Source: Candidatus Abawacabacteria bacterium RBG_16_42_10
Lineage (GTDB): Bacteria; Patescibacteriota; Gracilibacteria; RBG-16-42-10
Assembly: GCA_001773455.1 (NCBI GenBank)
Contig: MEWR01000010.1
Location: 5,037 to 38,304, forward strand
Length of the DNA: 33,268 bases
Reading direction: 5' to 3'
This document shows, piece after piece, positions 12,348 to 32,466 of this stretch. How positions within the stretch are numbered: the stretch's first letter is position 1; every line of letters begins with the position of its first letter. Below the pieces are notes generated by a model, which was not told the DNA's origin, did no database searches, and worked only from the letters and a program-made list of their open reading frames with translations. A program made the translations under genes and the position numbers.

Positions 12348-14003
12348 ATGACTAGGACTTGTAAACAATGTTCCACACCATTTGAAATCACCTCTGAAGA
12401 TCTGCAATTTTACGATCGATTTCAGGTACCAACTCCGGAGCAGTGTCCGAATTGTCGTTTGCTCCGCAGGATGCAAGAACGTAATGCTAAAAATCTCTAT
12501 TATAGGAAATGTGATTTTACCGGGGAAGAAATCATCTCGCAGTATCACAGCGATCATCCCTTCCCCGTTTACCAGTCAAAAGTGTGGTGGGGGGATGAGT
12601 GGGATGCTAGTGTCTATGGTCAGGACTTTGATTTTAATCAAGCATTCTTTCCCCAATTTAAAGCGCTTAAATATCGAACACCACACATGGCCCTATTCAT
12701 TATTCCGGGTATGGAGAATAGTGACTTTACCAATTGTACTGGATATCTCAAAAATTGTTATCTCATCGCTGAGAGTGATTATGATGAAGATTGTTATTAT
12801 TCCAATCTACTCAAAAAATGTAAAAATGTTTCAGATTGTTCTGTGTGTTATGAATGTGAATTATGCTATCAGTGTATCGACTGTCAAAATTGTCATAATC
12901 TGAAATTTTCTCAAGATTGTAGTTCATGCCAAGATAGCTATTTTCTAAGAGCTTGCCAGAATTGTCGAGACTGTATTGGTTGTATCAATCAAAGGCACAA
13001 ACAGTACATGATCTTCAATAAACAATACTCCAAAGAAGAATATGAACAGATGAAAAGTGCCATGCATCTCGATACTCATAGCGGTCTAGAAAAAGAACTT
13101 GAGGAAGCCGGGGCTCTGTTTGTTACTCAGCCTCATAAGAATCTCTCAATAGAAAAAACCGAGAACAGCACTGGGGACCATTTGTACAACGCCAAAGATG
13201 CTTACTATTGCTTTGATTGTAAGGATATCGAGGACTGTCGCTATTGTGTAAAACTTTCTCTCAATGTGAAATCTTGTATGGATTATAGTTCGTGGGGAGA
13301 TAAGACCGAACTCGTTTATCAATCAGCTTCGTGTGGAGATAATGCATACAATATTAAGTTCTGTACTACCTGTACAACCAATATTCGCGATTTAGAATAT
13401 TGTGATCAGTGCACCGCATCATCAGATCTTTTTGGTTGTGTAGGTCTGAAGCGTAAACAGTACTGTATCCTCAATAAACAGTACTCCAAAGAGGATTACT
13501 TTGCGCTGAAACAAAAGATTATCGAACATATGAAAAAGACTGGTGAATATGGAGAATATTTCCCAGCTGATATGTGTCCTTATGGTCATAATGAGACCAT
13601 GTCTCAAGATTTCTTTCCGCTTAGCAAAGAAGAGGCATTAGGTCGTGGTTTTAAATGGAAAGATGAAGATAGAAGCAATCGCTATCAGGGGACAATACCT
13701 CAAATTCCCGAGCGCAGTAGTGACCTTCCCGAGGAAATTACCAAACATATTTTAGGCTGCAAGAGTTGTGGCAAAAATTATCGTTTGATCAGTCAAGAAG
13801 TAGGTTTCTACAAGATGTTGAATGTACCGGCACCAACGCAATGCTTTGATTGTCGTCATAAAGCTCGTATCCAAGCTAGGAATCCTTTTCAGATCTGGAA
13901 AAGAACATGTGCTAGATGCTCTCAGGATATGAATACCAGCTATGCGCCCGATCGCCCGGAAATCGTGTATTGCGAGAAATGCTATTTAGAAACCGTCTAT
14001 TAA
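12348..14003 (+). CDS. Cys-rich zinc-ribbon/solenoid paralog 1
   Basis: 551 aa. N-terminal CKQCSTPFEI..FYDRF..PEQCPNCR; middle repeats NSDFTN..LKNCYLIAESDYDEDCYY..CELCYQCIDCQNC; C-terminal CKSCGKNYRLISQEVGFY..PTQCFDCRH..CARCSQDMNTSYAPDRPEIVYCEKCYLETVY. Confidence 0.9.
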   Translation: MTRTCKQCSTPFEITSEDLQFYDRFQVPTPEQCPNCRLLRRMQERNAKNLYYRKCDFTGEEIISQYHSDHPFPVYQSKVWWGDEWDASVYGQDFDFNQAFFPQFKALKYRTPHMALFIIPGMENSDFTNCTGYLKNCYLIAESDYDEDCYYSNLLKKCKNVSDCSVCYECELCYQCIDCQNCHNLKFSQDCSSCQDSYFLRACQNCRDCIGCINQRHKQYMIFNKQYSKEEYEQMKSAMHLDTHSGLEKELEEAGALFVTQPHKNLSIEKTENSTGDHLYNAKDAYYCFDCKDIEDCRYCVKLSLNVKSCMDYSSWGDKTELVYQSASCGDNAYNIKFCTTCTTNIRDLEYCDQCTASSDLFGCVGLKRKQYCILNKQYSKEDYFALKQKIIEHMKKTGEYGEYFPADMCPYGHNETMSQDFFPLSKEEALGRGFKWKDEDRSNRYQGTIPQIPERSSDLPEEITKHILGCKSCGKNYRLISQEVGFYKMLNVPAPTQCFDCRHKARIQARNPFQIWKRTCARCSQDMNTSYAPDRPEIVYCEKCYLETVY

Positions 14004-14012
14004 AAACCATTT

Positions 14013-15677
14013 ATGACCAAAACTTGCAAGCGTTGTACCTCCGACTTCGACATTTCCTCTGAAGATCTCAAATTTTATGAAAAGGTTTCGCCGGTATTTC
14101 GAGAACAAAGATTCTTGATTGCGCCGCCAAACTTATGTCCTGACTGCCGCAGGCAAGATCGTCTGGCATTTCGTAATGAGAAAAAACTCTATCAGCGCAA
14201 ATGCGACTCCTGCCAAAAAGAAATTATTTCCATGTATTCAGCTGATGTGCCATTTAAAGTTTTTTGTCCCACCTGCTGGTGGGGTGATGGCTGGGACAGC
14301 ACTAAAATTGGCCAAAGTTTCGATTTTAGTCGGCCATTCTTTGAGCAATTTCATGAACTTTTGCAAAATGCGAGCTTGTCTTCACTGCTCGCTAAAAATA
14401 ACGAAAACAGTGACTATGTGAATTTAGAAACTGACGACAAGAATTGTTATCTCAATGCCGGTGGGCATTTCAATGAGGATTGTTATTACAATACCTACTG
14501 CATGAAGGGAAAGAATAATGTCGACAATTATTGGCTTATAGATTCTGAACTGTGCTACATGTGTGTGAACTGCGAGAAATGTTATAGCAGCACCTACTTA
14601 CAAGACTGCAGTAATGTCCGTGACAGTCATTATTGTCGTGATTGTAAGGACTGTGAGCATTGTTTTGGTTCTTATGGTTTACGTCACAAGAAATATTATT
14701 ACTTCAATGAAGAGCTTTCGAAAGATGCATATGAAAAGAAAGTGAAAGCCCACTTGGACAGTTTTGAATCTCGAGAAGAAGCTAGGGAATTGGCATATAA
14801 ACATTTTCTGAAATATCCACATCAAGCCAGTAGAATCGCTCAGTGTGAAGAGTGTACTGGAGATCTTCTGGTGCGTTGTAAGAATCTCAAAAGTGCTTTC
14901 AATTTTGACGATTCGGAGGATGGCAAATACTTACAGATTGGTCTACACCTGAAAGATGCCATGGACATTACTTCATTTGGTTGGGGCGAACTGATATACC
15001 AAGTTTCTTCTTCGATGAATTTGAAGAATTCTGGATTTCTAGCTTTGAGTGCTGATGGTCACAATGTTTGGTATGGCCAGTTTTGCTGGAATTCTAGCGA
15101 TTGTTTTGGTTGTGTTGGTATGTACCGGAAGCAGTATTGCATCTTGAATAAGCAGTACACAAAGGAAGAATATGAAGCTTTGCTGCCCAAGGTCATCGCT
15201 CATATGCAAAAGACCGGCGAATGGGGACAATATTTCCCTTTGGCATTATCAACCTTTTGTTACAATGAATCGGTTGCCAATGACTATTTCCCTTTGACGA
15301 AAGAAGAAGCCTGGAAAATTGGAGCCATGTGGCGCGATCAAGACACGATTAACAAGTATCAAGGACCAAGAATTGCAGTCCCTAGCCACATCAAAGATGT
15401 AACGGATGACATTACCAAGCAAATTCTGACTTGTGTTACTTGTAACAGAAATTATCGCATTGTAAATCAAGAATTAGACTATTATCGCTGTATGGATTTA
15501 CCTGTGCCTCATGATTGTCTGGACTGTCGCAATCGTTTCCGTTTGTCCCTCAAAAATCCTCAAAAAGTTTGGGAACGCAATTGTGCCAAATGCAGTACTG
15601 CGATTAGTACGAGCTATTCTCCCGATCGCCCCGAGACCGTGTATTGCGAAAAGTGCTACTTAGAAACCGTTTACTAA
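14013..15677 (+). CDS. Cys-rich zinc-ribbon/solenoid paralog 2 (second N-terminal ribbon intact)
   Basis: 554 aa, same architecture; RKCDSCQKEIISMYSADVPFKVFCPTCWWGD keeps all four Cys ligands. 9 bp after paralog 1. Confidence 0.9.
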   Translation: MTKTCKRCTSDFDISSEDLKFYEKVSPVFREQRFLIAPPNLCPDCRRQDRLAFRNEKKLYQRKCDSCQKEIISMYSADVPFKVFCPTCWWGDGWDSTKIGQSFDFSRPFFEQFHELLQNASLSSLLAKNNENSDYVNLETDDKNCYLNAGGHFNEDCYYNTYCMKGKNNVDNYWLIDSELCYMCVNCEKCYSSTYLQDCSNVRDSHYCRDCKDCEHCFGSYGLRHKKYYYFNEELSKDAYEKKVKAHLDSFESREEARELAYKHFLKYPHQASRIAQCEECTGDLLVRCKNLKSAFNFDDSEDGKYLQIGLHLKDAMDITSFGWGELIYQVSSSMNLKNSGFLALSADGHNVWYGQFCWNSSDCFGCVGMYRKQYCILNKQYTKEEYEALLPKVIAHMQKTGEWGQYFPLALSTFCYNESVANDYFPLTKEEAWKIGAMWRDQDTINKYQGPRIAVPSHIKDVTDDITKQILTCVTCNRNYRIVNQELDYYRCMDLPVPHDCLDCRNRFRLSLKNPQKVWERNCAKCSTAISTSYSPDRPETVYCEKCYLETVY

Positions 15678-15798
15678 AATCTATGGATAAGACCTGCAAA
15701 AATTGTTCTCAGCATTTCGAGGTGAGTGATGAAGATATGAAGTTCTATGAGCGTGTATCACCAATTATCAAAGGTACGACGTATCTCATCCCACCACC
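15615..15798 (+). repeat. Direct repeat copy A (end of paralog 2 / start of paralog 3)
   Basis: Identical to copy B over 15615-15747, then only 3 mismatches to 15798. Confidence 0.9.
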
Positions 15799-17359
15799 CA
15801 CACTCTGTCCCGATTGTCGACAACAAAGAAGATTGGCTTTTAGAAATGAAAGAAAACTCTATCATCGTAAATGCGATTTCAGTAATAAATCAATTATCTC
15901 TATATATTCACCCGATTCTCAATATATTGTATATGATCAAGATGTTTGGTGGAGTGATAAATGGGATGCCATGTCATACGGACAAAAATTTAATTTCAAT
16001 CGACCATTTTACGAACAATTCAATGAATTGATGCTTAAAGTTCCACGCATGTCACGTAATGCCATAAATAACGAAAATTCTGACTTTACGAATTTTTCGG
16101 GGACTTGTAAAAATTGCTACCTAGTTTATACAGCAGACGATAATGAGAATTGTTATTATGGAGCATTTGTTATGCATGATAGAGACTGTGTAGACTGCCT
16201 TTTTACGTATAATTCTGAACTTTGCTATGAGGTTTCAGATGGTCAAAAATGCTATGACGTTATGTTCGGGGCAAATATCGAGAATTCTAACAATGCCCTA
16301 TTTATTCGGGACTGTATTGGCTGCAATAATTGCATCATGTGTATTGGCCTTCGCAATAAGTCCTATTATTATAAAAACAAACCTGTTAGCGTTGAAGAAT
16401 TTAAAAAAATAAAAATTGAAACTCTGAAAAAAATTATGGGAAATATACAAGAATTAAAAAAAGAATTTTATGAGTTCTCATTATCTTTTCCAAGAAGATA
16501 TATGAATTCTATTAAATCCGAGAATTGTATTGGAGATTATATACTTAATTCACACAAACTTGACCACTGTTTTGACGCTAATGAATCAGAAGATTGCAAG
16601 TATGGATCTTGGTTGTATCAATGTAAAAATTCGTATGATTGTAGTTTCAATGGCCTCCCAGGAGAATGGGGATATGAACTAATTAGCGTAGCGCACAACG
16701 TATATCATTGCTTATTTTGCAATAATTGTTGGGGAAGTAATAGCGATATGATGCTTTCTGATCTTTGCCAATATTGTAAAAATTGTTTTGGATGTGTGGG
16801 TCTTAAGAATAGAGCATACTGTGTGTTTAATGCTCAATATACCAAAGAAGAGTATGAAAAGTTGGTTGGTAGGATTATTGAACATATGAAGCAAGGAGGC
16901 GAGTGGGGCGAGTTTTTCCCGACCAAGAATTCACCCTTTGGTTACAACGAAACTATTGCTCAAGAGTATTTTCCCTTGACCGAAGAAGAGGCATTAAAAC
17001 AAGGACATAAATGGCTTACTCAAAGAGACATGAATGTATATTATGGGAAAAAGCTCGTCATTCCTCAAAATATTAATAAAGTCTCTGATGATATTTGCAA
17101 AGAAATTCTTACCTGCAATACCTGCGATAAAAATTTCCGAATTATTATTCAGGAATTGGATTTTTACCGACGTATGCAGTTACCTGTCCCTCCAAATTGT
17201 TTTGATTGTAGACATCGTGCACGATTGGCCGCTAGAAACCCTCGAAAATTGTGGAAACGACAGTGTATGAAGTGTAATGCAAATATTGAAACGACGTATG
17301 CTTCTGATCGTCCCGAGATTGTGTACTGTGAAAAATGCTATTTAGAAACTGTTTATTAA
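15683..17359 (+). CDS. Cys-rich zinc-ribbon/solenoid paralog 3
   Basis: Start re-set from 15644 to the ATG at 15683 (MDKTCKNCSQHFEVSDEDMKFY) by comparison with paralogs; the upstream 13 codons are an out-of-frame reading of the previous gene's 3' end. Confidence 0.88.
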   Translation: MDKTCKNCSQHFEVSDEDMKFYERVSPIIKGTTYLIPPPTLCPDCRQQRRLAFRNERKLYHRKCDFSNKSIISIYSPDSQYIVYDQDVWWSDKWDAMSYGQKFNFNRPFYEQFNELMLKVPRMSRNAINNENSDFTNFSGTCKNCYLVYTADDNENCYYGAFVMHDRDCVDCLFTYNSELCYEVSDGQKCYDVMFGANIENSNNALFIRDCIGCNNCIMCIGLRNKSYYYKNKPVSVEEFKKIKIETLKKIMGNIQELKKEFYEFSLSFPRRYMNSIKSENCIGDYILNSHKLDHCFDANESEDCKYGSWLYQCKNSYDCSFNGLPGEWGYELISVAHNVYHCLFCNNCWGSNSDMMLSDLCQYCKNCFGCVGLKNRAYCVFNAQYTKEEYEKLVGRIIEHMKQGGEWGEFFPTKNSPFGYNETIAQEYFPLTEEEALKQGHKWLTQRDMNVYYGKKLVIPQNINKVSDDICKEILTCNTCDKNFRIIIQELDFYRRMQLPVPPNCFDCRHRARLAARNPRKLWKRQCMKCNANIETTYASDRPEIVYCEKCYLETVY

Positions 17360-17364
17360 ACTGT

Positions 17365-19038
17365 ATGAACAAGATTTGTAAACAGTGCCAAACACAATTC
17401 GATGTGACTGAAGAAGATTTGCAGTTTTACGATAAAGTCTCGCCGGTTTTTGCTGGAAAGAAATATGAAGTTCCTCTCCCAACACTTTGTCCACCTTGCA
17501 GACAGCAAAGGCGACTCGCCTGGCGTAATGAAAGAAAATTGTACAATCGCAAATGCGATCTCACTGGAAAACAAATTATTTCAGTGTTTTCTCCAGATAA
17601 ACCTTTCAAGGTTTATGATAAAGATGCCTGGTGGAGTGACAGTTGGGATGAACTTTCGTATGGCAGAGAAGTGGACTTTAATCGACCATTTTTGGATCAG
17701 TTGAAAGAGCTTATGCTCGATGTCCCTCGTATGGCGTTGTGGAATATTGATCCTGTGAACAGTGATTATAACCAATCTACAGGATGGCTCAAGAATTGTT
17801 ATTTGTTAGCAGCAGCCAATAGAAATGAAGATTGTTATTATGGCAATTATGTAAACGATTGTAAAAATTGTGTAGACAATTTAATGATCAAGAATTGTGA
17901 ACTGTGTTATGAGTGTATCGAATGCGAAGGCAGTTATGAGTGTTTCTTTTGTAAGAATTGTGTGAATTGTACTTCTTCACAGTTTCTCTTCAATTGTATC
18001 AGCTGTACCAACTGTTTCGGCTGTGTAAATCTCCAGAGAAAAGAATATTGTTTTTTCAATGAACAGCTCAGCAAGGAAGAGTATCAAATAAAAATAAAAG
18101 AGATCAATACCAAAAGTTATCTACATCTTGAAAAGCTTGCTGCGTTGATGAAAGAAACAGTGCTTAAATATCCTGTGAAATATATGATCGGAACTCACAA
18201 TGAAGATGTGACTGGTAACGGGATATATCAGTCTCATCATGCCTATGCATGTTTTGATGTTAGTAAGTTAGAAAATTGTAGTCATTGCTCTTGGTTTCAT
18301 GAAGCTAAGGACTGTATGGATACTTTTGCTTGGGGTATGTCAGCAGAGTTGTGTTATGACAGTATGGAAATCGGCGGAGGAGCGTATAGAACACTCTTCT
18401 GTGCTACATCACAGGGTACCAAGAATGCTTTCTATTCCTATCAATGCATGTTTTCAGAAAATATTTTTGGTTGTGTGGGACTGAAAAGGAAAAAACACTG
18501 TATTCTCAATAAACAGTATACCCAAGCGGAGTATGAGCAATTGTTGCCAAAGATTATTGAACATATGAAGAAGGGTAATGAGTGGGGAGAATTTTTCCCT
18601 TATTCTCTCAGTCCTTTTTGTTATAACGAGACAGTTGCCAGTGAATTTTTCCCATTATCCCCTGACCAGGCGGTCAGTTTGGGATCTGCATGGAGAGAAG
18701 AAGATGATCAAAACAAGTATCAGGGACCAAGATCGGATCTCCACGATACTATCGACGATGTTTCTGATGATGTATTGAAAAGTATATTAACGTGCGCCAA
18801 ATGCCAGAAGAATTACAAAGTAATCAGTCAAGAATTACAGTTTCACCGAGACCATAGTGTAGCTTTGTCACAATTTTGTCCTGCTTGTCGGCATCAGAAA
18901 AGAATTGAACAAAGAAATCCTCGTAAACTCTGGGATCGTCATTGTGCCAAATGTACTACTGCGATCAGTACCAGTTATTCTCCCGATCGCCCCGAGACCG
19001 TGTATTGCGAAAAGTGCTACTTAGAAACCGTTTACTAA
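17365..19038 (+). CDS. Cys-rich zinc-ribbon/solenoid paralog 4
   Basis: Start re-set from 17335 to 17365 (MNKICKQCQTQFDVTEEDLQFY). Same architecture. Confidence 0.88.
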   Translation: MNKICKQCQTQFDVTEEDLQFYDKVSPVFAGKKYEVPLPTLCPPCRQQRRLAWRNERKLYNRKCDLTGKQIISVFSPDKPFKVYDKDAWWSDSWDELSYGREVDFNRPFLDQLKELMLDVPRMALWNIDPVNSDYNQSTGWLKNCYLLAAANRNEDCYYGNYVNDCKNCVDNLMIKNCELCYECIECEGSYECFFCKNCVNCTSSQFLFNCISCTNCFGCVNLQRKEYCFFNEQLSKEEYQIKIKEINTKSYLHLEKLAALMKETVLKYPVKYMIGTHNEDVTGNGIYQSHHAYACFDVSKLENCSHCSWFHEAKDCMDTFAWGMSAELCYDSMEIGGGAYRTLFCATSQGTKNAFYSYQCMFSENIFGCVGLKRKKHCILNKQYTQAEYEQLLPKIIEHMKKGNEWGEFFPYSLSPFCYNETVASEFFPLSPDQAVSLGSAWREEDDQNKYQGPRSDLHDTIDDVSDDVLKSILTCAKCQKNYKVISQELQFHRDHSVALSQFCPACRHQKRIEQRNPRKLWDRHCAKCTTAISTSYSPDRPETVYCEKCYLETVY

Positions 19039-19159
19039 AATCTATGGATAAGACCTGCAAAAATTGTTCTCAGCATTTCGAGGTGAGTGATGAAGATATG
19101 AAGTTCTACGAGCGTGTATCACCATTTATCAAAGGTACAACGTATCTCATCCCACCACC
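18976..19159 (+). repeat. Direct repeat copy B (end of paralog 4 / start of paralog 5)
   Basis: Offset +3361 from copy A; see copy A. Confidence 0.9.
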
Positions 19160-20717
19160 GACATTCTGTCCTTTATGTCGTCAGCAACGGCGTATGTCAT
19201 GGAGAAATGAAAGAAAATTGTATAATCGGAAATGCGATTTCTCCGGTAGACCAATCGTCTCTATTTACTCTGCAGATAAACCATACAAAGTCTATGAAAG
19301 TAAAGTCTGGTGGAGTGATGACTTTGATGGGAAAAAATATGCCCGAGATTTTGATTTCTTGCGTCCTTTCTTTGAACAATTGCGCGAATTGCAGTTGGTA
19401 GTTCCTCGACTCGCTTTGTTTGGGAAAAAAGGTGAAAATAGTGAGTATACGAATCACGCTGATCAATTAAAAAACTGCTATCTCGTGATGAATGGTGGAA
19501 ATTCAGAGAACTGCTTTTATGCCAATTGGGTCGTAAATTGCCGAGATTGTATGGACTCATCGTATGTAGATGGTTGTGAACTCTGTTATGAATGCACCTA
19601 CTGTAATACATGCTATAACTGCCAATTTGCGTATCACTGCGATGATTGCCGTGATAGTCGCTTTGTGTATGACTGCAAAGGGGTGAGTAAGAGTGTTTTG
19701 TGTGTTGGGCTTCGCAACAAATCATATTGTATTTTGAATGAACAATATTCCAAGGAAGAGTTTGAAAAGAAGATCAAAGAATTCTCTACCGCTTCCTACA
19801 CTGAATTACAAATATTACAAAAGAGTTTCCAAGAGCTTCTGCTCAAACATCCTCATAGAGCTTTGTTTCTCAATAATAGCGAGAATTGTTCCGGACAGAA
19901 TATTTTTAACAGCAAGAATTGTCAGCAATGTTTTTTCCTTTATGATTCACAGGATTGCAAATATTGTTACAACTCGGCAGTTAACATCACCGATAGCTAT
20001 GACATATATGAAACAGGTATAAATTGTGAGTTACAAATCGAAACTCACGCCTGCAATCGTTCGAAATATATCGGATTCTCTAATGCTAGCTACGATAACA
20101 ATAATATTTGGTATTCAGACAACTGTCATAATTCGTCATACCTTTTTGGTTGTATTGGGCTAAAAAAAGACCAGTACTGTATTCTGAATAAACAATATTC
20201 GAGAGAGGAATATGAACGGTTGGTACCAAAGATTATTGAGCACATGAAGAAGAGTAATGAGTATGGCGAGTTCTTTCCTACGAGCATGTCACCGTTCGCA
20301 TACAATGAAACCGTCGCTCATGATGCTATTTCCATGACTAAGGAACAGGTTGAGGCTAAGAATTGGCATTGGTATGAAGATGCTCTGGGTGGTGATTATC
20401 AAGGCGAAAAAGCACGTATACCTGATACCATTGAAGATGTAGAAGATGATATTCTCGAGAAAATATTAACGTGTGAAACTTGTCAGAAACATTATCGAAT
20501 TATCCGCCAAGAACTCAACTTCTATCGTCAGCAAAAAATTACTCTTCCCCGTCAATGTGTGGACTGTCGTCATCGCGTTCGTACGAAAAATCATTATCAG
20601 TTCACTTTGTTTCCTCGGAATTGTGCTAAATGCAATTTTGGCATACAAACGACGTATGCTTCTGATCAACCCGAGACAGTGTATTGCGAAAAGTGTTATT
20701 TAGAAACGGTTTACTGA
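19044..20717 (+). CDS. Cys-rich zinc-ribbon/solenoid paralog 5
   Basis: Start re-set from 18942 to 19044 (MDKTCKNCSQHFEVSDEDMKFY). Same architecture. Confidence 0.88.
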   Translation: MDKTCKNCSQHFEVSDEDMKFYERVSPFIKGTTYLIPPPTFCPLCRQQRRMSWRNERKLYNRKCDFSGRPIVSIYSADKPYKVYESKVWWSDDFDGKKYARDFDFLRPFFEQLRELQLVVPRLALFGKKGENSEYTNHADQLKNCYLVMNGGNSENCFYANWVVNCRDCMDSSYVDGCELCYECTYCNTCYNCQFAYHCDDCRDSRFVYDCKGVSKSVLCVGLRNKSYCILNEQYSKEEFEKKIKEFSTASYTELQILQKSFQELLLKHPHRALFLNNSENCSGQNIFNSKNCQQCFFLYDSQDCKYCYNSAVNITDSYDIYETGINCELQIETHACNRSKYIGFSNASYDNNNIWYSDNCHNSSYLFGCIGLKKDQYCILNKQYSREEYERLVPKIIEHMKKSNEYGEFFPTSMSPFAYNETVAHDAISMTKEQVEAKNWHWYEDALGGDYQGEKARIPDTIEDVEDDILEKILTCETCQKHYRIIRQELNFYRQQKITLPRQCVDCRHRVRTKNHYQFTLFPRNCAKCNFGIQTTYASDQPETVYCEKCYLETVY

Positions 20718-22410: not shown

Positions 22411-24105
22411 ATGTCACAAAAAAGAACGTGTGTAGTCACGGGCAAAGAATTTACGATATCCGATAAGGAAGAAAAATATTGCACAACCAATAATATTCCG
22501 CTGCCAGATATGTGTCCTGAAGAAAGAATGTGCCAAATGGAGGGCATGTCGAATTCTGTATATCTCTATAACGGCACCTGCGCCTTCACGCATAAGCCAA
22601 TACTGACACCGACACCTCCTGATAAGGGATTTACTGTCTATGATATTGATGCTTGGAATTCCGATAAGTGGGATCCGCTTTCTTATGGCCAAGATATTGA
22701 TTGGAATCGGCCATTTTTTGAACAATTGGCTGAATTACAAAAAAAAGTACCTGTGCCCAGCCTTTTTGTGGCGAGATCAACGGTGGTTAATAGTGATTAT
22801 TGTAATGGCGTAGGGTATCTCAAAAACTGTTATTTGCTTTTTGTATCTGCCAACGACGAGGATTGTCTTTTTTCATTCGGACTATTTGGCTGTAAAAATG
22901 TCGTTGATACATTATGGGGCACAGATTGTGAGCTTTGTTATGGATCATTTCATATCACCAATTGTTATAATTGTCGCTTTGTAGAAAATTGTAGCAATTG
23001 TTCGGATTCTAGTTTTCTCTATAACTGTCAGGGACTCAAAAATTGCTTTGGCTGCGTAAATCTCAATAATAAGGAATATTGTTTTTACAATGAGCCATAT
23101 ACAAAAGAGGAATATCAAAAGAAAATAGCGGAAGTGGATTTGGGCAGCAATGAACGAGTGAAAAAGGAAGCTGATAAGTTTCATCAGTTTAAGTTAAAAT
23201 TTCCCCATAAACATCTCATTGGCAAACAAAATGAAAATTCGACCGGTAATTATTTAGACAATACCAAGGACTGTCATAATTGTTTCTTCTCTCAAAATAT
23301 TCAGGACTTGGAAAATTCTATACAGATCAGAGATGCTAAGGATAGTATGGATTTTCTCGGTTTTGGCATGCATGCTGAATTAATTTATCGCTCTCACGGT
23401 TGTGGTGACAATGCTTACAATCTTAAATTTTGTTTAAGTTGTTTCGGTAATGTGCGTGATTTGGAATACTGTATCTACGCGAATTCAGGAACGAAAGATT
23501 GTTTTGGCTGTATTAGTTTAAAACGTCAGGAATATTGCATACTCAATAAAAAGTATTCCAAAGAAGAATATTTTGCTTTAGTTGAACGTCTCAAAGAGCA
23601 TATGCGCAGGTCCCCACTGCGGTCGCCTGATGCGACCTTCGAGGGGCAGGCTGGTGAATATGGTAGTTTCTTTCCTCCACATTTGAGTTATTTCTATTAC
23701 AATCAATCCGAAGGCATGAATTATTTTCCGATAACAAAGGAAGAGGCGACTAAGCGTGGATTTGCTTGGTTTACAGAAAAGGTAGAGGATTTTGTGCCTA
23801 CGTACACTCTTCCTGATCATATTCGCGATGTAAAAGATGATGTACTGCATGCAGTACTCCGCAGTGAGAAAAGTGGTAAGAAATATCGGATGATTAAACA
23901 AGAATTGGAATTCTATCGTCGAATGAATGTGCCACCACCGCACACTTCCCCCATGGAAAGAATACAAGAAAATTTGAAGCATACGGCAATTCTGCCTCTG
24001 AAGACAATGAAGTGCAGCAGACATGGTGAAACTATCGAAACGGTCTACGATTCTACCAAGCAACAAGTATACTGTGAGAAGTGTTATCAGGAGACTATCT
24101 TGTAG
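22411..24105 (+). CDS. Cys-rich zinc-ribbon/solenoid paralog 7 (degenerate N-terminal ribbon, palindromic insertion)
   Basis: 564 aa; CVVTGKEFTISDKEEKYC at N-terminus; insertion RRSPLRSPDATFEGQA before GEYGSFFP. Confidence 0.88.
   Translation: MSQKRTCVVTGKEFTISDKEEKYCTTNNIPLPDMCPEERMCQMEGMSNSVYLYNGTCAFTHKPILTPTPPDKGFTVYDIDAWNSDKWDPLSYGQDIDWNRPFFEQLAELQKKVPVPSLFVARSTVVNSDYCNGVGYLKNCYLLFVSANDEDCLFSFGLFGCKNVVDTLWGTDCELCYGSFHITNCYNCRFVENCSNCSDSSFLYNCQGLKNCFGCVNLNNKEYCFYNEPYTKEEYQKKIAEVDLGSNERVKKEADKFHQFKLKFPHKHLIGKQNENSTGNYLDNTKDCHNCFFSQNIQDLENSIQIRDAKDSMDFLGFGMHAELIYRSHGCGDNAYNLKFCLSCFGNVRDLEYCIYANSGTKDCFGCISLKRQEYCILNKKYSKEEYFALVERLKEHMRRSPLRSPDATFEGQAGEYGSFFPPHLSYFYYNQSEGMNYFPITKEEATKRGFAWFTEKVEDFVPTYTLPDHIRDVKDDVLHAVLRSEKSGKKYRMIKQELEFYRRMNVPPPHTSPMERIQENLKHTAILPLKTMKCSRHGETIETVYDSTKQQVYCEKCYQETIL
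23608..23650. repeat. Small GC-rich palindromic element inserted in-frame within paralog 7
   Basis: CCCC..GGTCGC-CTGAT-GCGACC..GGGG; absent from all other paralogs at the same site. Confidence 0.6.
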
Positions 24106-24129: not shown

Positions 24130-24157
24130 TTGTCAAGTATATAAATTGTGGTATAAT
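24130..24157 (+). promoter_or_regulatory. Candidate promoter for the HerA/TraD-like ATPase
   Basis: TTGTCA (24130-24135) - 16 nt - TATAAT (24152-24157), 22 nt before ATG 24180. Confidence 0.55.
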
Positions 24158-24179
24158 TACCTGAAAAGACACTGCCAAA

Positions 24180-26423
24180 ATGACCCAGACTAAGACATTA
24201 CTTATCCGCATACCACAGGGATTTATTGAAAAGGGATTTCCCTTATTTAAAACAGAAAAACTTTTTGAGGAACTTTTGGTGACATCGTATAAGACCTTGA
24301 AACATCAAAAGATTTCTTTGGAATTTATTTCTTATCATCAAAATATCTATTTCTACCTTCATATTCCGACAGGAAGCTTGGAATTGGTGGAAGGACAATT
24401 GTATTCGGTTTTCCCCGAATGTGAGATTCTTCATGTACACGATTATGCTGATGAGCGTCTCTTGCAAAGTTTAAAGATTGTCGGTACTGAATTGAAATTA
24501 GCTCGTTCAGATATTTATCCACTTAAGAACTATTTAGCATTTGAAGGAGATTCTTTGGCGTCAGTTTTTTCCGTGCTTACTCGCGGCGATAAACAAGATC
24601 AAGGTTGGGTGCAAATAGTGATCAGTCCCTTGCCGGATAGTTGGACATTTAATTTCATCCGCTCTTGGAAAATACGTCTTCGAGGAATTAAAAGTTTTTT
24701 CCGTTTTAAGAATGTTTTTAAAGCACACAATGTGCGTAAGGTGGAATCAGAAGCTATCACGAGCAAAACTCAAAAAGAACATTTTGCCATCAATATACGA
24801 CTGGCATATCTCAGCCTTGATGAAGAGAAAGCCTGGCAAAAACTGAAAGCTTTGGCCGGTGCTTTTTCCCAATTTAATACGATTGATTTTAACAGTTTTA
24901 AATCCACACATTCAGGTAGTGGTCGAGCATTCTTAGAGCGTTACAAAACACGTACTCGCAGCAATACTTTTCAGGCGAATACCCAGGAAATAGCCACCCT
25001 TTATCATTTCCCTAATTCAGATTTCGTGTCTAATATGTTCCATGTGATTGCACGTAAGGCACAACCACCGTTGGATTTACCGGTGCAGGGGACTGTCGAC
25101 GCTAAATCTACCTGTTTTTTTGGCACTACAAATTATCACAATCAAAACAATGTGTTTGGTATCAAACGTGCCGATCGTCGTCGTCATGCATATGTGATCG
25201 GTAAAAGTGGAACGGGAAAGAGTAAACTTCTGGAACTTCTCGTGCATGAAGATATTCGCGATGGTTATGGAGTAGCGGTTTTGGATCCTCATGGTGACTT
25301 GATCGACAATATCATGCGTCATATTCCGGAGAATCGTATGAAAGATGTTATTTACTTTGATCCTGCTGATACTGAATTTGCTATCGCTTTCAATCCACTT
25401 GAGCAAGTACCACCACAAATGCGTATGCGTGTGACTATCGGTTTCATTGAGATCTTCAAAAAGATGTTTGGTAGCAACTGGACCCCACGCTTGGAGCATG
25501 TACTGCGCTACACCACTCTCGCTTTGCTTGATTCTCCGAATACGACTGTGCTCAGTATTCTGAAGATGTTAACTGATAAAAACTATCGTCAGCGCATAGT
25601 TGCTCGTATTGAAGATTCTGTCGTTAAAAATTTCTGGGTCAATGAATTTGCCAGCTGGAGTGAAAAATTCGACAATGACGCAATTATGCCGATCTTGAAT
25701 AAAGTGGGGCAATTTTTGTCTACAGCACTTATTCGAAATATGATCGGACAATCTGAAAACAAACTCAATCTTCGTAAAATCATGGATGATCAGAAAATTC
25801 TTCTGGTGAAATTATCTCGAGGTCTTCTCGGCGATGAAAATAGTAATCTCTTGGGAGCCATGCTTATTACCAAGATTCAACAAGCAGCTATGAGCCGTGC
25901 TGATATCAAAGAAGAGGAGCGTAAGGACTTTTATCTTTATGTCGATGAGTTTCAAAACTTTGCTACCGACACCTTTGAGCAGATTCTCTCTGAAGCGAGG
26001 AAATATCGTTTATCTGTTACGCTAGCGCATCAATTCATGTCCCAGATCTCACCGGCACTTCGCTCTACAGTCCTGGGGAATGTAGGTACCGTTGTTAATT
26101 TCCGTATTGGCGCTGATGATGCCGGTATTTTGGAAAGAGAATATATTCCAATCTTTAAAGTAAGAGACCTGATCAATCTGGGCGTACAGGAATTTTATAT
26201 GAAAATGTCCATCGACGGCGAAACGAAAAACGCCTTCTCTGGGCGAACTCTTACTATGGGGTATCCCGAGAAAGATTTCACTAAGGAAATCATCGAGCAT
26301 TCTCGGAAAATGTATGCCAAGCCCAAGGCAGAAGTAGAAAAAGATTTAGCCGCTTGGGAGAAAGTCGGCAGTGAGCCGGTGGCTAAACCCATGGAAGAAG
26401 AGTTTGCGAAGCCGCTGGTGTAA
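24180..26423 (+). CDS. HerA/VirD4(TraD)-superfamily DNA-pumping-type ATPase
   Basis: Walker A VIGKSGTGKSKLLELL; GVAVLDPHGDLIDNIM; Walker B FYLYVDEFQNFATDTFEQILSEARKYRLSVTLAHQFMSQI. Confidence 0.85.
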   Translation: MTQTKTLLIRIPQGFIEKGFPLFKTEKLFEELLVTSYKTLKHQKISLEFISYHQNIYFYLHIPTGSLELVEGQLYSVFPECEILHVHDYADERLLQSLKIVGTELKLARSDIYPLKNYLAFEGDSLASVFSVLTRGDKQDQGWVQIVISPLPDSWTFNFIRSWKIRLRGIKSFFRFKNVFKAHNVRKVESEAITSKTQKEHFAINIRLAYLSLDEEKAWQKLKALAGAFSQFNTIDFNSFKSTHSGSGRAFLERYKTRTRSNTFQANTQEIATLYHFPNSDFVSNMFHVIARKAQPPLDLPVQGTVDAKSTCFFGTTNYHNQNNVFGIKRADRRRHAYVIGKSGTGKSKLLELLVHEDIRDGYGVAVLDPHGDLIDNIMRHIPENRMKDVIYFDPADTEFAIAFNPLEQVPPQMRMRVTIGFIEIFKKMFGSNWTPRLEHVLRYTTLALLDSPNTTVLSILKMLTDKNYRQRIVARIEDSVVKNFWVNEFASWSEKFDNDAIMPILNKVGQFLSTALIRNMIGQSENKLNLRKIMDDQKILLVKLSRGLLGDENSNLLGAMLITKIQQAAMSRADIKEEERKDFYLYVDEFQNFATDTFEQILSEARKYRLSVTLAHQFMSQISPALRSTVLGNVGTVVNFRIGADDAGILEREYIPIFKVRDLINLGVQEFYMKMSIDGETKNAFSGRTLTMGYPEKDFTKEIIEHSRKMYAKPKAEVEKDLAAWEKVGSEPVAKPMEEEFAKPLV

Positions 26424-26460
26424 ATCGTAAATCGTGAGTTGTGAATCGTGAATGGAAATG

Positions 26461-26624
26461 TCATCCCGAAGCGAACCCCGAATACATACGTTTATTGGAA
26501 CAATATAGCTAATAGAGGGGGAGTTCGAGGGATCTCTTTGAGATGTTGTTTCTTGACTACCGGACAGGCTTACCACGAGATCCCTCGGACCCAGCCCTGA
26601 TTACAGAGCTGGGCTTCGGGATGA
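26461..26624. repeat. Nested palindromic intergenic repeat, element 1 (uninterrupted)
   Basis: Outer IR TCATCCCGAAGC (26461-26472) / GCTTCGGGATGA (26613-26624); inner IR CGAGGGATCTC (26526-26536) / GAGATCCCTCG (26577-26587). Confidence 0.8.
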
Positions 26625-26685
26625 CTGTTAGGGTTGACTACCAAGATTGATTGTATAGACTTATGGCACAATCTCTCATGAAAGT

Positions 26686-28329
26686 ATGCCTGTTTGTAAA
26701 GTCTCTGGTGAAGAATTCGAATATTCTGCCCTGGAACAAAGAATTCGTGATAAGCTCACAGTGCCGATGCCAACGATTTCACCGAAGAGTGCTTTTCAGC
26801 ATTTAGGTGCTTTTTGGCAACACTTTGCTCTTCATAAGCGGAAATCCGATTTCTCCCAAGAAGAAATTATTTCAGTATTTGATGAACATTGCCCATATCC
26901 GGTATGGCACCGAGATGAATGGGTAAAAAATGCCAATCCTTCATTTGCTGGCTATAATTTCGATAAACCCTTTTTTGATCAATTGTGGGAGCTGTTTCAG
27001 AAGTGTCCGATGCCTCATATGATTGGCGGAGGCAATGAAAACTGTGAATACACTGATGATTGGTGGCATTCCAAGAATTGTTATCTTTGTCATTCTGGGG
27101 TTGATAATGAAGACTTATATTACTGTTATCGGGTGGGGAGATGTCGTAGTTCTCTTTTTGCTGTTTTTTGCTTTGACTGTGAGTTGTGTACTGACTTGGT
27201 GAGTTGTGACAATTGTTACAATGTGACGTACGCCATTAATTCCGCCTATTGTCGGGACTCATACTTCTTATTTGATTGTCGCAATTGCAGCGATTGTCTT
27301 TTTTGTTTTAATTTGCGCAACAAACAATATTGTATTGGGAATAAGCAATTAACCAGAGAGGAATTTGAAACGGAAAAAGCCAAATATAATTTCTCTTCAT
27401 TTAAACACTATGAGAAAGCAAAAGAAGAATTTGCTCAGACGATAACAACCCAAGCTTGGTGGCGAACTTTACAAGTAAATAAGTGTGAGAACGTTACTGG
27501 TAACTATCTCCAGAATGACAAGAACATGGATAATTGTTTCTTTTTGGAAGAGAGTGAAGACTGTGCCAATTATTTTCGTGGATACAAATTGAAAGATGTG
27601 AGTAGTAGTGTTGGCTGCTTCAATATCGAATTAGCAGTCGGTTCAGTTCTGACTCAAGATGGTTCTTACGATGCACGATTTTGTTTCAATGTTATTAATT
27701 CAAGATTCATGGAATATTCTATGAATTGTCTGAATTGTGAGCATTGTTTTGCCTGTAGTGGTTTGGTCGGTAAGAAATATCACATCTTGAATAAAGAATA
27801 TTCTCCTGAAGAATATGGGACTATAAAAGAGAAAATCGTACAACAACTCCGTGACCAGGATATCTATGGTGATTTCTTTCCAGGACATTTTGCTCCCTGT
27901 AGCTATGAAGAAAGTTTAGCACAGGTTTATTGGCCGCTTTCTCATGAAGAACAGAAGCAAAAAGGTCTTCGGGTCAAAGCTGATACCAATTATCCTGTTC
28001 ATGAATACCTTACACGGGATGATATCCCTGACGATTCTTTGAGTGCCAATGACAATATCTGCAAGAAAGCCTTTTGGGATGAAACAGCTAAAAAACCTTT
28101 CACAATTTTGAAATCTGATTTAGAATTTTGCCAAAGACAGAAAATCCCTTTACCTCATGGTTATTACGTACCGCGCATCAAGGAAAATTTTGCATGGCTC
28201 TTTTTCGATGGTGCCTTGCGAGAAACAACTTGTGCCAAGACAGGTAAAAGGGTTTTGACCACCCTGCCGGCGAAGCTAGATGGACGCATTCTGAGTGAGG
28301 AGGCGTATTTGGAAACAATCGTTGGTTAA
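26686..28329 (+). CDS. Cys-rich zinc-ribbon/solenoid paralog 8 (terminal ribbons degenerate)
   Basis: 547 aa; CKVSGEEFEYSALEQRIRDK at N-terminus; solenoid NENCEYTD..SKNCYLCHSGVDNEDLYYC; C-terminal CAKTGKRVLTTLPAKLDGRILSEEAYLETIVG aligns to the intact CxxC..YCEKCYLETVY tail. Confidence 0.87.
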   Translation: MPVCKVSGEEFEYSALEQRIRDKLTVPMPTISPKSAFQHLGAFWQHFALHKRKSDFSQEEIISVFDEHCPYPVWHRDEWVKNANPSFAGYNFDKPFFDQLWELFQKCPMPHMIGGGNENCEYTDDWWHSKNCYLCHSGVDNEDLYYCYRVGRCRSSLFAVFCFDCELCTDLVSCDNCYNVTYAINSAYCRDSYFLFDCRNCSDCLFCFNLRNKQYCIGNKQLTREEFETEKAKYNFSSFKHYEKAKEEFAQTITTQAWWRTLQVNKCENVTGNYLQNDKNMDNCFFLEESEDCANYFRGYKLKDVSSSVGCFNIELAVGSVLTQDGSYDARFCFNVINSRFMEYSMNCLNCEHCFACSGLVGKKYHILNKEYSPEEYGTIKEKIVQQLRDQDIYGDFFPGHFAPCSYEESLAQVYWPLSHEEQKQKGLRVKADTNYPVHEYLTRDDIPDDSLSANDNICKKAFWDETAKKPFTILKSDLEFCQRQKIPLPHGYYVPRIKENFAWLFFDGALRETTCAKTGKRVLTTLPAKLDGRILSEEAYLETIVG

Positions 28330-29873
28330 ATCTGGAACAGTATCTTTGACCTTCGGTCATTCCGCGTATTGAAACTATAGACTGGCACAGGTATGCCCAT
28401 TTGTTTATAGAATGCCAATTCTTTTTTCTGTAATTTATACGCGCGATGAGTTTCTGCATCTTGCAGTACTTGATCGCAGATTGATTCGTCGACTTGATCG
28501 ATAGTGTCTGGAATAGAAATAGCTGTTTCGGTGGTGGTGAAGGCTTTTTTGCCCAACCAATAAACGCCTAATCTTTTTGCTTCTTCGTCTGAAGAAATGG
28601 GAAAATGCTGTTGAGCAATAGTATCTACATAGGGAAAATCTGCCATACTGAGAGGGAAGAACTGGCCCCATTCCCCAGTGGACTCCATATGCTTCTTAAT
28701 TCTTGGTAATAATTCGTGGTATTCTTCCTTTGTATATTGTTTGTTCAAAATACAATAATTTTGTTTACGACTGAAGCCCACACAGCCAAATAAATATTCC
28801 CCGCCACCGTAAATGTTATTGCAATAGATCGCATGAAGATTGTTCTGATTCATGCAACCAAATTGACTATCATATGTGCTTACCATCGAAGATGATCGAT
28901 AGACCAATTCACACTTGGCTACACCAGCTACATCAAAAGTGTCTCTTGATGCACGTACATGATATCCATTCAAAATATTGTTAGATTCTTTAATAAAAAT
29001 GGAATTCTTACAATGCGCAGAGTGATCGATATACGTGCCGGTGCAGTCTTCGCTGTTTGTAATAGTGGAGTAGTTTAACCCTTTTTCTTTCACTAATTCC
29101 CAAAACTTTTTCTGGAGTTCTTCAATGCTTTTTCGAGAGCCAAGATTCATTTCTTTTATTTTCTGCTCATATTCTTCTTTGGAATACTCAACATTCCAAA
29201 TGCAATATTTTTTGTGCTCTAGTCCAACACAACCAAAACAATCGGTACAGTTGCGACACATATAAAGCATGGCTGAATCCCGGGAATTGAAGGAATGGTA
29301 GCCCCAGCGCACATTGTAACAACTGCCGCAGTCAACACATTCATAACAAAGCTCACACTCAGTAATCTCCGTGCAATCTACACAGTTCCTGCATTTGAAT
29401 ACTCTAAAACCATAATAACAGTCCTCACTATCCCAGGATACAAAAGTAAGGAAACAACTTTTAACATTGGCACCGAGATGAACATATGGGCTATTTTCCA
29501 TATTTATACCCTGTCGGCTCGGTCTGGGAACTGTTTTCAAAAGATCATGAAATTGTTCAAAGAAGGTCCTAGAGAAGTCGTAGTCACGGCCATAAGCCAA
29601 ACCATCGTATTCTTCAGAGTACCAAGCTTCATTACTATACACCGGAAAAGGTGCATCAGGACGATAACTACTGATTATGGTTTTTTTTGTCTTGTCACAT
29701 ATGCGCTCGAACATATTTCCTTCATTTCTATTGGCATACTGTTCCCTTGTTCGCCAAGCTGGAGAAACATCCGGCAAAGGAATGCCTCGTTCCTCCAAAT
29801 AGCTTTTTTCAAAATCGCTAATCGTGAATTTCTCACCGGTGCGAACGCAAATTTTTTCCATAATAATTTTCAT
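28326..29873 (-). CDS. Cys-rich solenoid paralog 9 (short C-terminus)
   Basis: 515 aa; better start probably MEKICVRTGEKF a few codons in (ATG near 29861). MENSPYVHLGANVKSCFLTF..CELCYECVDCGSCYNV..FGCVGLEHKKYCIWNVEYSKEEYE. Stop overlaps the convergent paralog 8 stop (TTAA, 4 bp). Confidence 0.88.
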   Translation of the reverse strand: MKIIMEKICVRTGEKFTISDFEKSYLEERGIPLPDVSPAWRTREQYANRNEGNMFERICDKTKKTIISSYRPDAPFPVYSNEAWYSEEYDGLAYGRDYDFSRTFFEQFHDLLKTVPRPSRQGINMENSPYVHLGANVKSCFLTFVSWDSEDCYYGFRVFKCRNCVDCTEITECELCYECVDCGSCYNVRWGYHSFNSRDSAMLYMCRNCTDCFGCVGLEHKKYCIWNVEYSKEEYEQKIKEMNLGSRKSIEELQKKFWELVKEKGLNYSTITNSEDCTGTYIDHSAHCKNSIFIKESNNILNGYHVRASRDTFDVAGVAKCELVYRSSSMVSTYDSQFGCMNQNNLHAIYCNNIYGGGEYLFGCVGFSRKQNYCILNKQYTKEEYHELLPRIKKHMESTGEWGQFFPLSMADFPYVDTIAQQHFPISSDEEAKRLGVYWLGKKAFTTTETAISIPDTIDQVDESICDQVLQDAETHRAYKLQKKELAFYKQMGIPVPVYSFNTRNDRRSKILFQI

Positions 29874-29960
29874 TTATGCGAGCATATCGTAAGATATGTT
29901 TTTGTCAAAGCTAGTCGTGGAGGTCACAATTTGTGACCTCCATTCTAGGACACTCTTGAG

Positions 29961-30472: not shown

Positions 30473-30852
30473 CGAAGTTTCGTCATCCCACGCAGTTTGG
30501 TGAATGTGCGCATGATTTGTATGTTGACTGCAATCGCTCTGTCGCTACTTAGTATCCCGGATAACATAGCTACGCCTTGCTCTGTAAATACAAAGGGATA
30601 TTTTCGTAACCCACCCCAACTTGATATCACAAATTGTGATATCAAATTCTTAGCTTCCGTCTGCGTTAATTGGAACATAAAGTCGCTAGGAAAGCGTTTT
30701 AAATTACGTCTTACGGCTTGATTTAATACATGGGTCTTTACTCCATATAGGGTTGCTAAATCTCGATCTAACATGACTTTCTTGCCGCGAAGCAAGAGAA
30801 TTTTGTTTTCAATAAGCTCTAGAGGAACAAATACTAATTCATTGTCAGACAT
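30430..30852 (-). pseudogene. ORF6N-domain protein, 3' end replaced by palindromic repeat sequence
   Basis: VPLELIENKILLLRGKKVMLDRDLATLYGVKTHVLNQAVRRNLKRFPSDFMFQLT...YPFVFTEQGVAMLSGILSSDRAI..IMRTFTKLR, then GMTKLRHPEAKRSGVRGIS, which is translated repeat element 2. Confidence 0.8.
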
Positions 30853-30915
30853 ACATAAAAAGATTAAGTCTTGTATTATAACAAGACAAAAATGAAAAAA
30901 ATCTTTTGACTTTGT

Positions 30916-32466
30916 TTAAGGGGTTTTATTAAATTGAAATAGTATCTTTGACCTTTTGAGATTGCGCGTTTCAAAACTATATACCGGTACAGGTATATTC
31001 ATCTTCTTATAAAACTCCAGTTCTTTCTTTTGTAGCTTGTAGGCGCGATGTGTTTCTTGATCCTGTAATATTTGATCACAAATTGATTCATCGACCTGAT
31101 CGATAGTATCGGGAATTTCAACTTTTTTATCAGTTGTTGTGAATGCCTTTTGTTTCAATACATAAACATCCCACTTTTCCGCTTCTTCATCCGTCATGGG
31201 GAAATCCACTTGAGCGGGAGAGTCAATGTAAGGGAATTCGGCATATTTAAGAGGGAAAAATTTTCCTAATTCTCCAGTAGATTCCATGTGTTTTAAGATC
31301 CTTGGTAACAATTCTTCGTATTCTTTTTGAGTGTATTGTTTGTTCAAAATACAATAGGAATTTTTTTTGCTAAAACCGATACAACCGAATAAATGATTAC
31401 CTCCGCCGAGTATCCCATTGCAATACATAGAATCAATCAACATCGTGGCATTAAAGCAAAATTGAGTATTATAAGAGTTTCTGGCTACGCCAGCAGAATA
31501 ATAGAGTAGTTCTCCATTGATCGCTCCTCTCGAACTATAACAATCCCGACCACCGTGTATGGTGTGACAGTTCAGTACATGATTACAGTTTTTGAGAAAA
31601 TATGAGTCTTTGCAGTTAACCGAGTGTTCAATATAAGCACCAGTACAATTTTCACTTTGAACAATTGAGTCAAAAACAACACCAGATTCTTTCACGAATT
31701 TCCAAAATTTTTGCTGTAGCTGTTCAAGGTTCTTACGCGAACTTAAATTCATTGCCTTCATCTTTTGTTCATATTCCTCTTTGGTGTACTCAACATTCCA
31801 AATACAATAGGACTTCTGCTTAAGTCCGACACAGCCGAAACAATTTGTACAGCCCCTGCACAAGTACAAAAATGCAGAGTCAGAGGAATTGTGTGTGTGA
31901 TAAGCCCATTTTACGTTATAACACTTGGTGCAATCGATACATTCATAGCAGAGTTCACTCTCGTCAACTTCGATACAGTCCATACAATCGCGAGAACGAT
32001 ACAAACGATAGCTGTAAAAGGAGTCTTGATCTTCATAGGAAACAAAAATATAATGGCTATTTTTAATATTCATGACCGCATTCACGTACGGACTTCCTTC
32101 TAGACCAATGGCTACTCTCGATGGACGAGGAACCACTTTCCACAGATCACGGTATTGCTCAAAGAATGGCCGACTGAAATCGTAATCGCGACCATATGTG
32201 AATGGATCATACTGATCAGAAATCCAGATATCATAGTCATACACGGGAAATTCAGCGTCCGTTCGATAGCAGCTGATGATTTTCTTGCTACTTTTGCTGC
32301 AGGTCCTTTCAAAAAGATTAAATTCATTGCGATTGGCAAAGAGCTCTCGTAGTCGCCACATGGGAGATACTGTAGGTAATGGCAATTTTCGCTCTTCTAA
32401 ATAGGCGATTTCGTCGTCAGTTATCGTGAATGGGACATTTGTTTGGGTGCAGATTCTTTTTTCCAT
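30916..32466 (-). CDS. Cys-rich solenoid paralog 10 (short C-terminus)
   Basis: 516 aa; MEKRICTQTNVPFTITDDEIAYLEERKLPLP; closest to paralog 9, sharing the TIDQVDESICDQ(V/I)LQD.ETHRAYKLQKKEL.FYK.M.IPVPVYSF.TRN..RSKILFQ C-terminus. Confidence 0.9.
   Translation of the reverse strand: MEKRICTQTNVPFTITDDEIAYLEERKLPLPTVSPMWRLRELFANRNEFNLFERTCSKSSKKIISCYRTDAEFPVYDYDIWISDQYDPFTYGRDYDFSRPFFEQYRDLWKVVPRPSRVAIGLEGSPYVNAVMNIKNSHYIFVSYEDQDSFYSYRLYRSRDCMDCIEVDESELCYECIDCTKCYNVKWAYHTHNSSDSAFLYLCRGCTNCFGCVGLKQKSYCIWNVEYTKEEYEQKMKAMNLSSRKNLEQLQQKFWKFVKESGVVFDSIVQSENCTGAYIEHSVNCKDSYFLKNCNHVLNCHTIHGGRDCYSSRGAINGELLYYSAGVARNSYNTQFCFNATMLIDSMYCNGILGGGNHLFGCIGFSKKNSYCILNKQYTQKEYEELLPRILKHMESTGELGKFFPLKYAEFPYIDSPAQVDFPMTDEEAEKWDVYVLKQKAFTTTDKKVEIPDTIDQVDESICDQILQDQETHRAYKLQKKELEFYKKMNIPVPVYSFETRNLKRSKILFQFNKTP

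What the first reader, a model, noticed from the sequence alone, without database searches (positions are those of the whole stretch)
12348..32466. Ten-member island of giant Cys-rich solenoid/zinc-ribbon paralogs: main candidate undescribed system
Seen: ten ORFs of ~515-570 aa with the same layout fill ~20 kb. Seven are head-to-tail on + with 1-18 bp gaps, one is downstream of an ATPase, and two are on -. All carry repeated blocks such as NSDYTN..LKNCYLLF..NEDCYYG..CKNCVDC..CELCYEC..CYNC..FGCVGLRNKQYCILNKQYSKEEY. Paralogs are highly diverged in the middle but conserved at the ends. No N-terminal signal peptide is evident. Inference: lineage-specific expansion of a metal-binding scaffold, perhaps diversified by recombination. 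Function is unknown; nucleic-acid binding, metal storage and defence are all open.
Basis: partly seen in the sequence, partly recalled or inferred. Interest (0 to 1): 0.92.

Follow-up and report, generated by a model that had tools for sequence, protein, structure and literature searches.

The report
Zinc-capped cysteine solenoid array in Patescibacteria
Tiny Patescibacteria carry up to dozens of copies of an undescribed protein, two cysteine-lined coils capped at both ends by zinc fingers, in tandem arrays that share a dedicated DNA switch and often a soluble motor ATPase; what the system does is unknown.

Summary
In detail: ten paralogous ORFs (515-564 aa), seven head-to-tail. The genome (1.10 Mb, Peregrinibacteria-like Patescibacteria) has 18 matching stretches; related genomes have 0-51. 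No Pfam, NCBIfam or PADLOC model covers the protein, and no solved structure matches at E<=0.001; PHROGs offers one unknown-function family over solenoid A.

Much of the interpretation changes. Each protein is ZF pair - solenoid - solenoid - ZF pair; the two solenoids are homologous, and so are the two ZF pairs. Only the end caps behave as metal sites (four Cys kept or lost together). Solenoid Cys sit on a 3-residue period, vary one by one, are replaced by Ser/Leu/Val/Thr and show no even parity: a buried Cys ladder, not metal storage or disulfides. The array is not a recent lineage-specific expansion: members have orthologues in other genera.

New: the island is part of a module. A TrmB-type regulator is divergent from a family gene, with an 18-bp palindromic operator (TGTAGAA-N4-TTCTACA) between them, rediscovered in genomes outside the training set. 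A soluble HerA/VirD4-like ATPase, lacking its paralogues' membrane anchor, often follows the array. Distant genomes carry unfused versions.

Best reading: a regulator-switched cytosolic adaptor set working with a ring ATPase. Composition is well supported; function is inference.

The parts
11417..12178 (-). TrmB-type HTH regulator, divergent from the array; the only TrmB match in the genome
   Evidence: PF01978 E 1.2e-12; 1 match in own genome; 33 of 46 nearby TrmB genes in family loci are divergent
12185..12202 (.). 18-bp palindromic operator TGTAAAAAGTATTCTACA (13/14 to TGTAGAA-N4-TTCTACA)
   Evidence: only site with <=1 mismatch in the whole genome; rediscovered at the same place in other genomes
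12348..14003 (+). Family ORF 1 (43 Cys); orthologues in other genera incl. Kerfeldbacteria
14013..15677 (+). Family ORF 2; all four ZF sites intact
15683..17359 (+). Family ORF 3
17365..19038 (+). Family ORF 4
19044..20717 (+). Family ORF 5
20719..22392 (+). Family ORF 6, reference for the structure model
22411..24105 (+). Family ORF 7; N-cap zinc ligands partly lost
24180..26423 (+). Soluble HerA/VirD4-like ATPase at the end of the array, no membrane anchor, Walker A GKSGTGKS
   Evidence: PF02534/PF01935; 15 of 16 homologues in family loci lie within 125 bp of a family gene, 12 of them tandem downstream; anchor absent while paralogues have it
26686..28329 (+). Family ORF 8; N-cap ligands lost
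28326..29873 (-). Family ORF 9; C-terminal ZF2 absent
30916..32466 (-). Family ORF 10; 60% identical to ORF 9
15554..15853 (+). ORF2/ORF3 junction repeat, 89% identical to 18915-19214
18915..19214 (+). ORF4/ORF5 junction repeat, second copy

Best explanation
The island is a regulator-switched, cytosolic protein system. SHOWN by sequence: each family protein is [treble-clef ZF pair]-[Cys-lined solenoid, 12-residue coils]-[homologous second solenoid]-[homologous ZF pair]; a TrmB-type regulator lies divergent to a family gene with a shared palindrome between them; many arrays end in a soluble HerA/VirD4-like ATPase. PREDICTED by modelling: the solenoid is a right-handed beta-solenoid. INFERRED: TrmB binds the palindrome and controls both itself and the array according to an unknown signal. 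The proteins act as rigid adaptors: the basic zinc caps dock to nucleic acid or to partner proteins, the acidic solenoid faces (different in each ancient paralogue) each bind a particular partner, and the ring ATPase moves or remodels what they hold. Cys in the solenoids pack the core of the coil in a reducing cytoplasm.
For: Architecture: solenoid A vs B HHalign E 2.3e-37, N vs C ZF pair E 4.5e-30; 83% of Cys-Cys distances <=30 are multiples of 3, strongest at 3, 9 and 12; AF2 models pLDDT 87.9/pTM 0.91 full length and about 92 over solenoid A of ORF1; weak best fold matches of the solenoid are right-handed beta-helices, pentapeptide-repeat proteins first. Zinc caps: four Cys present or absent together (N_zf2 40 observed vs 1.2 expected; C_zf1 64 vs 9.7). 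Regulator: 46 of 48 TrmB genes in the loci lie within 1.5 kb of a family gene, 33 divergent; 10 of 16 class genomes that have both show the divergent pair (coordinates). Operator: all 13 sites with >=13/14 matches in 1.32 Mb lie upstream of a TrmB gene next to a family gene; found at the same place in G297, G092, G135, G291, G004, G243 and G302, which were not used to define it. ATPase: 12 of 16 tandem downstream, none with the N-terminal membrane helix that three paralogues have. Cap charge +2.4 and +5.5 (zf1), solenoids -5.0 and -4.1. Unfused relatives: 99-aa ZF pair plus 342-aa double solenoid side by side in G290.
Against: No nucleic-acid or partner binding has been tested. Solenoid surfaces are not hypervariable (outward-facing entropy 2.17-2.50 vs 2.79 in the linker), so a recognition repertoire is not demonstrated. 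Cap zinc sites are degenerate in some paralogues. The ATPase is found in only 15 of about 75 loci (many cut by contig ends), and own-genome single copies lie without TrmB or ATPase, so neither is obligatory for every copy. The operator is not seen beside every TrmB gene (a site of >=12/14 within 220 bp of 14 of 48); other TrmB groups may use other sites.
Confidence: 0.4

Rival explanations
1. DNA-mimic inhibitors: the acidic right-handed solenoids imitate DNA, like pentapeptide-repeat proteins, and shield or inhibit a DNA enzyme; the basic zinc caps position them on it.
For: Closest solved folds of the solenoid model are pentapeptide-repeat proteins including AlbG (E from 1.2e-3); solenoids net -5 and -4; cytosolic.
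Against: Fold matches are weak (none at E<=0.001, TM about 0.1); charge is modest for a DNA mimic; coil length is 12, not 20, residues; no Pentapeptide Pfam match.
Confidence: 0.15
2. Metal storage or buffering scaffold (one of the first reader's ideas): the Cys-rich solenoids hold many zinc or other ions.
For: About 38 Cys per protein (6.8%); CxxC spacing; by eye a metal ABC transporter lies 9 kb upstream (1847-3308).
Against: Solenoid Cys vary independently and are replaced by Ser/Leu/Val/Thr, rarely His; no metal-type all-or-none pattern there; TrmB has only about 2 Cys on average; no metal gene among the most recurrent neighbours.
Confidence: 0.12
3. Anti-phage or anti-plasmid defence system built on a HerA-like motor with a diversified sensor set.
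For: HerA-type ATPase (PADLOC mad8 3.7e-15 and weak HerA matches); patchy copy number 0-51; tandem arrays with recombined ends.
Against: No PADLOC match for the family; no recurrent defence neighbours seen; paralogues are ancient orthologous groups, not fast-changing; absent from PLSDB plasmids.
Confidence: 0.15
4. Exported, disulfide-stabilised surface or effector proteins, passed out by a type IV secretion-like coupling ATPase.
For: VirD4-like motor in the operon; Peribacteria are reported to have large Cys-rich extracellular proteins (PMC4736985).
Against: No signal peptide or membrane span; odd Cys counts as common as even (120 vs 94); the array ATPase lacks the membrane anchor expected of a coupling protein; published proteins are about 1,655 aa with signal peptides.
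Confidence: 0.08

Closest known systems
zf_Tbcl (PF13451) + zf_Tbcl_2 (PF23477) / TIGR04272 CxxC-x17-CxxC small zinc proteins
   Same: End caps have the same two-finger layout; a stand-alone 99-aa version next to a double solenoid exists in a relative
   Different: All matches are below curated cut-offs; no solenoids in those models; function unknown
Pentapeptide-repeat proteins (e.g. AlbG, 6fls)
   Same: Right-handed beta-solenoid, cytosolic, acidic; nearest solved folds
   Different: 12-residue Cys-lined coils with period 3 instead of 5-residue repeats; zinc caps; no sequence match
Tenebrio molitor thermal hysteresis protein (1ezg)
   Same: 12-residue coil with inward Cys; weak profile hit to solenoid A (E 0.61)
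   Different: Secreted with spacing-6 disulfides (own knowledge); here spacing 6 is the weakest of the short multiples of 3 and no pairing is seen; hit not significant and absent with the second profile
HerA / VirD4-TraD motor ATPases
   Same: DUF87/T4SS-DNA_transf core, Walker A
   Different: Dedicated, soluble, at the end of solenoid arrays
TrmB-type regulators
   Same: PF01978 HTH
   Different: No known ligand; sits divergent to a solenoid array with the palindrome TGTAGAA-N4-TTCTACA between
phrog_15341 and Campylobacter phage hypothetical proteins
   Same: Period-3 Cys solenoid
   Different: Stand-alone, no zinc caps, unknown function
Cys-rich extracellular proteins of Ca. Peribacter riflensis (PMC4736985)
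   Same: Same broad lineage, Cys-rich, clustered genes
   Different: About 1,655 aa, signal peptides, extracellular; a different set

Membership tests
zf_Tbcl / CxxC-x17-CxxC zinc proteins | Score above curated cut-off | tested here: not met
   all below cut-off
zf_Tbcl / CxxC-x17-CxxC zinc proteins | Two CxxC pairs conserved together | tested here: met
   all-or-none Cys; met by N1 and C2 caps in most members, N2 and C1 often degenerate
Pentapeptide-repeat proteins | A(D/N)LXX five-residue repeat / Pfam match | tested here: not met
   no match; period 3 and 12
Pentapeptide-repeat proteins | Right-handed quadrilateral beta-solenoid | tested here: inconclusive
   best but weak matches
Insect-type 12-residue antifreeze solenoid | Spacing-6 disulfide pairs per coil, secreted | tested here: not met
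TrmB regulators | PF01978 HTH above cut-off | tested here: met
   47.9 bits vs 25.6
TrmB regulators | Sugar sensing | not testable with these tools
   needs ligand assay
VirD4/TraD coupling proteins | P-loop core | tested here: met
VirD4/TraD coupling proteins | N-terminal membrane anchor | tested here: not met
   present in own-genome paralogues only
Known anti-phage defence systems (PADLOC) | Family protein matches a model | tested here: not met
Peribacter extracellular Cys-rich proteins | Signal peptide, very large | tested here: not met

The most novel reading that the evidence does not exclude
A previously undescribed kind of molecular machine of Patescibacteria: a TrmB-gated set of zinc-capped double-solenoid adaptors, each an ancient orthologous subfamily with its own partner, feeding a dedicated soluble DNA-translocase-type ATPase.
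Probability: 0.3. Interest if true: 0.88.

Novelty: categorically new. Interest (0 to 1): 0.74.

Why it matters
Up to 51 matching stretches of one undescribed protein in a genome of about 0.9 Mb that otherwise sheds genes means it probably does something important for these uncultured, probably symbiotic bacteria. The regulator, the operator and the ATPase turn an anonymous repeat family into a defined, testable module. The unfused ZF and solenoid genes suggest how it was assembled, and the Cys-ladder solenoid is a fold element also seen in phages, with no close solved structure.

Tried and rejected
Metal storage by the solenoid Cys: rejected as main role. Disulfide/secreted reading: rejected. 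Lineage-specific expansion: rejected by the tree. Hypervariable recognition surfaces: entropy gave no support. Phage or plasmid cargo: one viral-contig fragment, no plasmid hits, one weak ZF-region phage hit. TmAFP kinship: only a weak lead, not reproduced. Function from the enlarged operator set in G302: sites also precede an SLH/beta-propeller gene, a toxin-antitoxin-like pair and DUF4116 genes, but no common theme emerged. Promoter and terminator scans were near the shuffled expectation. Literature: one relevant paper, on a different Cys-rich set; other searches empty or irrelevant.

Full report
CHECK. The ten ORFs are present as described, with small corrections to start codons and gap sizes. 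They align over full length. The window lies in a 1.10-Mb, 28-contig genome (G000) that holds 18 matching stretches, some single and one split. No curated Pfam or NCBIfam cut-off is reached; PADLOC gives nothing; PHROGs gives only phrog_15341, unknown function, mainly over solenoid A.

DISTRIBUTION. Named relatives are almost all Peregrinibacteria/Peribacteria/Gracilibacteria, with some Kerfeldbacteria; two records labelled Bacteroidetes and Nitrospirota may be misbinned. In a phylum sample the family is in 17 of 25 other same-class genomes and 5 of about 260 genomes of other classes. In 30 class genomes 19 have a match, with 0 to 51 matching stretches (some are fragments), and copy number differs widely between genera of one family. 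It is not a plasmid or phage family. One relative (L059) reads through only with UGA=Gly.

ANATOMY. Profile-profile comparison shows that the two central halves are homologous (E 2.3e-37) and so are the two terminal ZF pairs (E 4.5e-30): ZF-ZF/solenoid/solenoid/ZF-ZF. Central Cys obey a 3-residue period (83% of distances up to 30 are multiples of 3; 33% expected) with a 12-residue coil; single beta-bridges 12 residues apart appear in the full-length model. A model of the ORF1 solenoids is confident over solenoid A (pLDDT about 92), and its weak nearest folds are right-handed beta-helices, led by pentapeptide-repeat proteins. The full-length model has no PDB match at E<=0.001.

WHAT THE CYSTEINES DO. 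Across 214 members the four Cys of each cap site are kept or lost as a block (N_zf2: 40 complete vs 1.2 expected from marginals; C_zf1: 64 vs 9.7), as expected of metal sites, though shared ancestry contributes. Solenoid Cys vary singly (largest phi 0.43), are replaced mainly by Ser, Leu, Val, Thr, Ala and Ile, and total Cys is odd in 120 and even in 94 members. They are therefore best read as a buried Cys ladder, not disulfides or metal clusters. No member has a hydrophobic N-terminus and essentially none a membrane span.

HISTORY. Own-genome members are scattered in the tree (12 changes, 8 forced), and several pair with genes of other genera, e.g. ORF1 with L015 at 56%. The array is a collection of old paralogues. 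Recombination touches the ends: the ORF2/ORF3 and ORF4/ORF5 junctions share 300 nt at 89% identity while the middles are about 50% identical, consistent with conversion or duplication across gene junctions. In G290 the ZF pair (99 aa) and the double solenoid (342 aa) are separate neighbouring genes, and G194 of another class has a separate double-solenoid gene, with a ZF-like match just upstream and, by sequence likeness, a membrane-anchored HerA/VirD4-like ATPase nearby.

THE MODULE. Only two neighbour types recur strongly. First, TrmB-type regulators: 46 of 48 lie within 1.5 kb of a family gene and 33 of these are divergent; in G000 the single TrmB gene is the divergent one here; 10 of 16 class genomes with both show the same pair (coordinates, compared by hand). 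Second, a HerA/VirD4-like ATPase: 15 of 16 within 125 bp of a family gene, 12 of them tandem downstream. All array-linked copies lack the N-terminal membrane helix found in three paralogues.

THE OPERATOR. The TrmB/array gaps share the palindrome TGTAGAA-N4-TTCTACA. The consensus was read from about nine gaps, then scanned: all 13 sites with at least 13 of 14 matches in 1.32 Mb lie upstream of TrmB beside a family gene, including several not used to define it (L005, L009, L011, L015, L022, L054). In whole genomes the window site is the only one within one mismatch, and sites recur in the same gap in G297, G092, G135, G291, G004 and G243; in G302 they precede TrmB and each of two family genes. 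Other one-mismatch hits outside G302 occur at about the rate of the reversed control. That TrmB binds it is inference.

FUNCTION. The best reading is a cytosolic, regulator-switched adaptor set for a ring ATPase: basic caps and acidic solenoids suggest binding to nucleic acid or proteins. This step is inference. DNA mimicry, defence and metal buffering remain open at lower probability; export is unlikely.

NOVELTY. Parts are known folds; the protein architecture and the TrmB-operator-array-ATPase module were not found in any library or in the open papers searched. AlphaFold DB, UniRef and subscription papers were not available, so prior mention under an uninformative name cannot be excluded.

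Noticed in passing
L059 (whole): Family array in a contig that needs UGA=Gly (code 25); full-length ORFs appear only then, so the family also occurs in a recoded lineage.
   Followed up: partly
L088 2376-3617 and 5382-6395: In G302, DUF4116-repeat genes are interleaved with family genes and face the same operators; G302 has 12 near-perfect sites, some before an SLH/beta-propeller gene and a toxin-antitoxin-like pair.
   Followed up: partly
L098 1435-1860: Campylobacter phage hypothetical protein (141 aa, 26 Cys) with every Cys-Cys distance up to 30 divisible by 3; matches the solenoid A profile, shuffles do not.
   Followed up: partly
window 10891-11271, 30050-30355, 30430-30852, 32660-33184: BRO-N, GIY-YIG and two ORF6N genes flank the island: mobile-element or phage-type genes, suggesting a plastic region.
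   Followed up: no
window 1847-3308: By eye, a ZnuB/ZnuC-like metal ABC transporter pair about 9 kb upstream of the array; not a recurrent neighbour.
   Followed up: no
window 24180-26423: The array ATPase matches phrog_5156 (E 2.9e-72) and Bacillus phage G gp156 (25% over 88%), so large phages carry related motors of unknown function.
   Followed up: partly
L081 5032-6510: A split family copy in the own genome, probably decaying.
   Followed up: no
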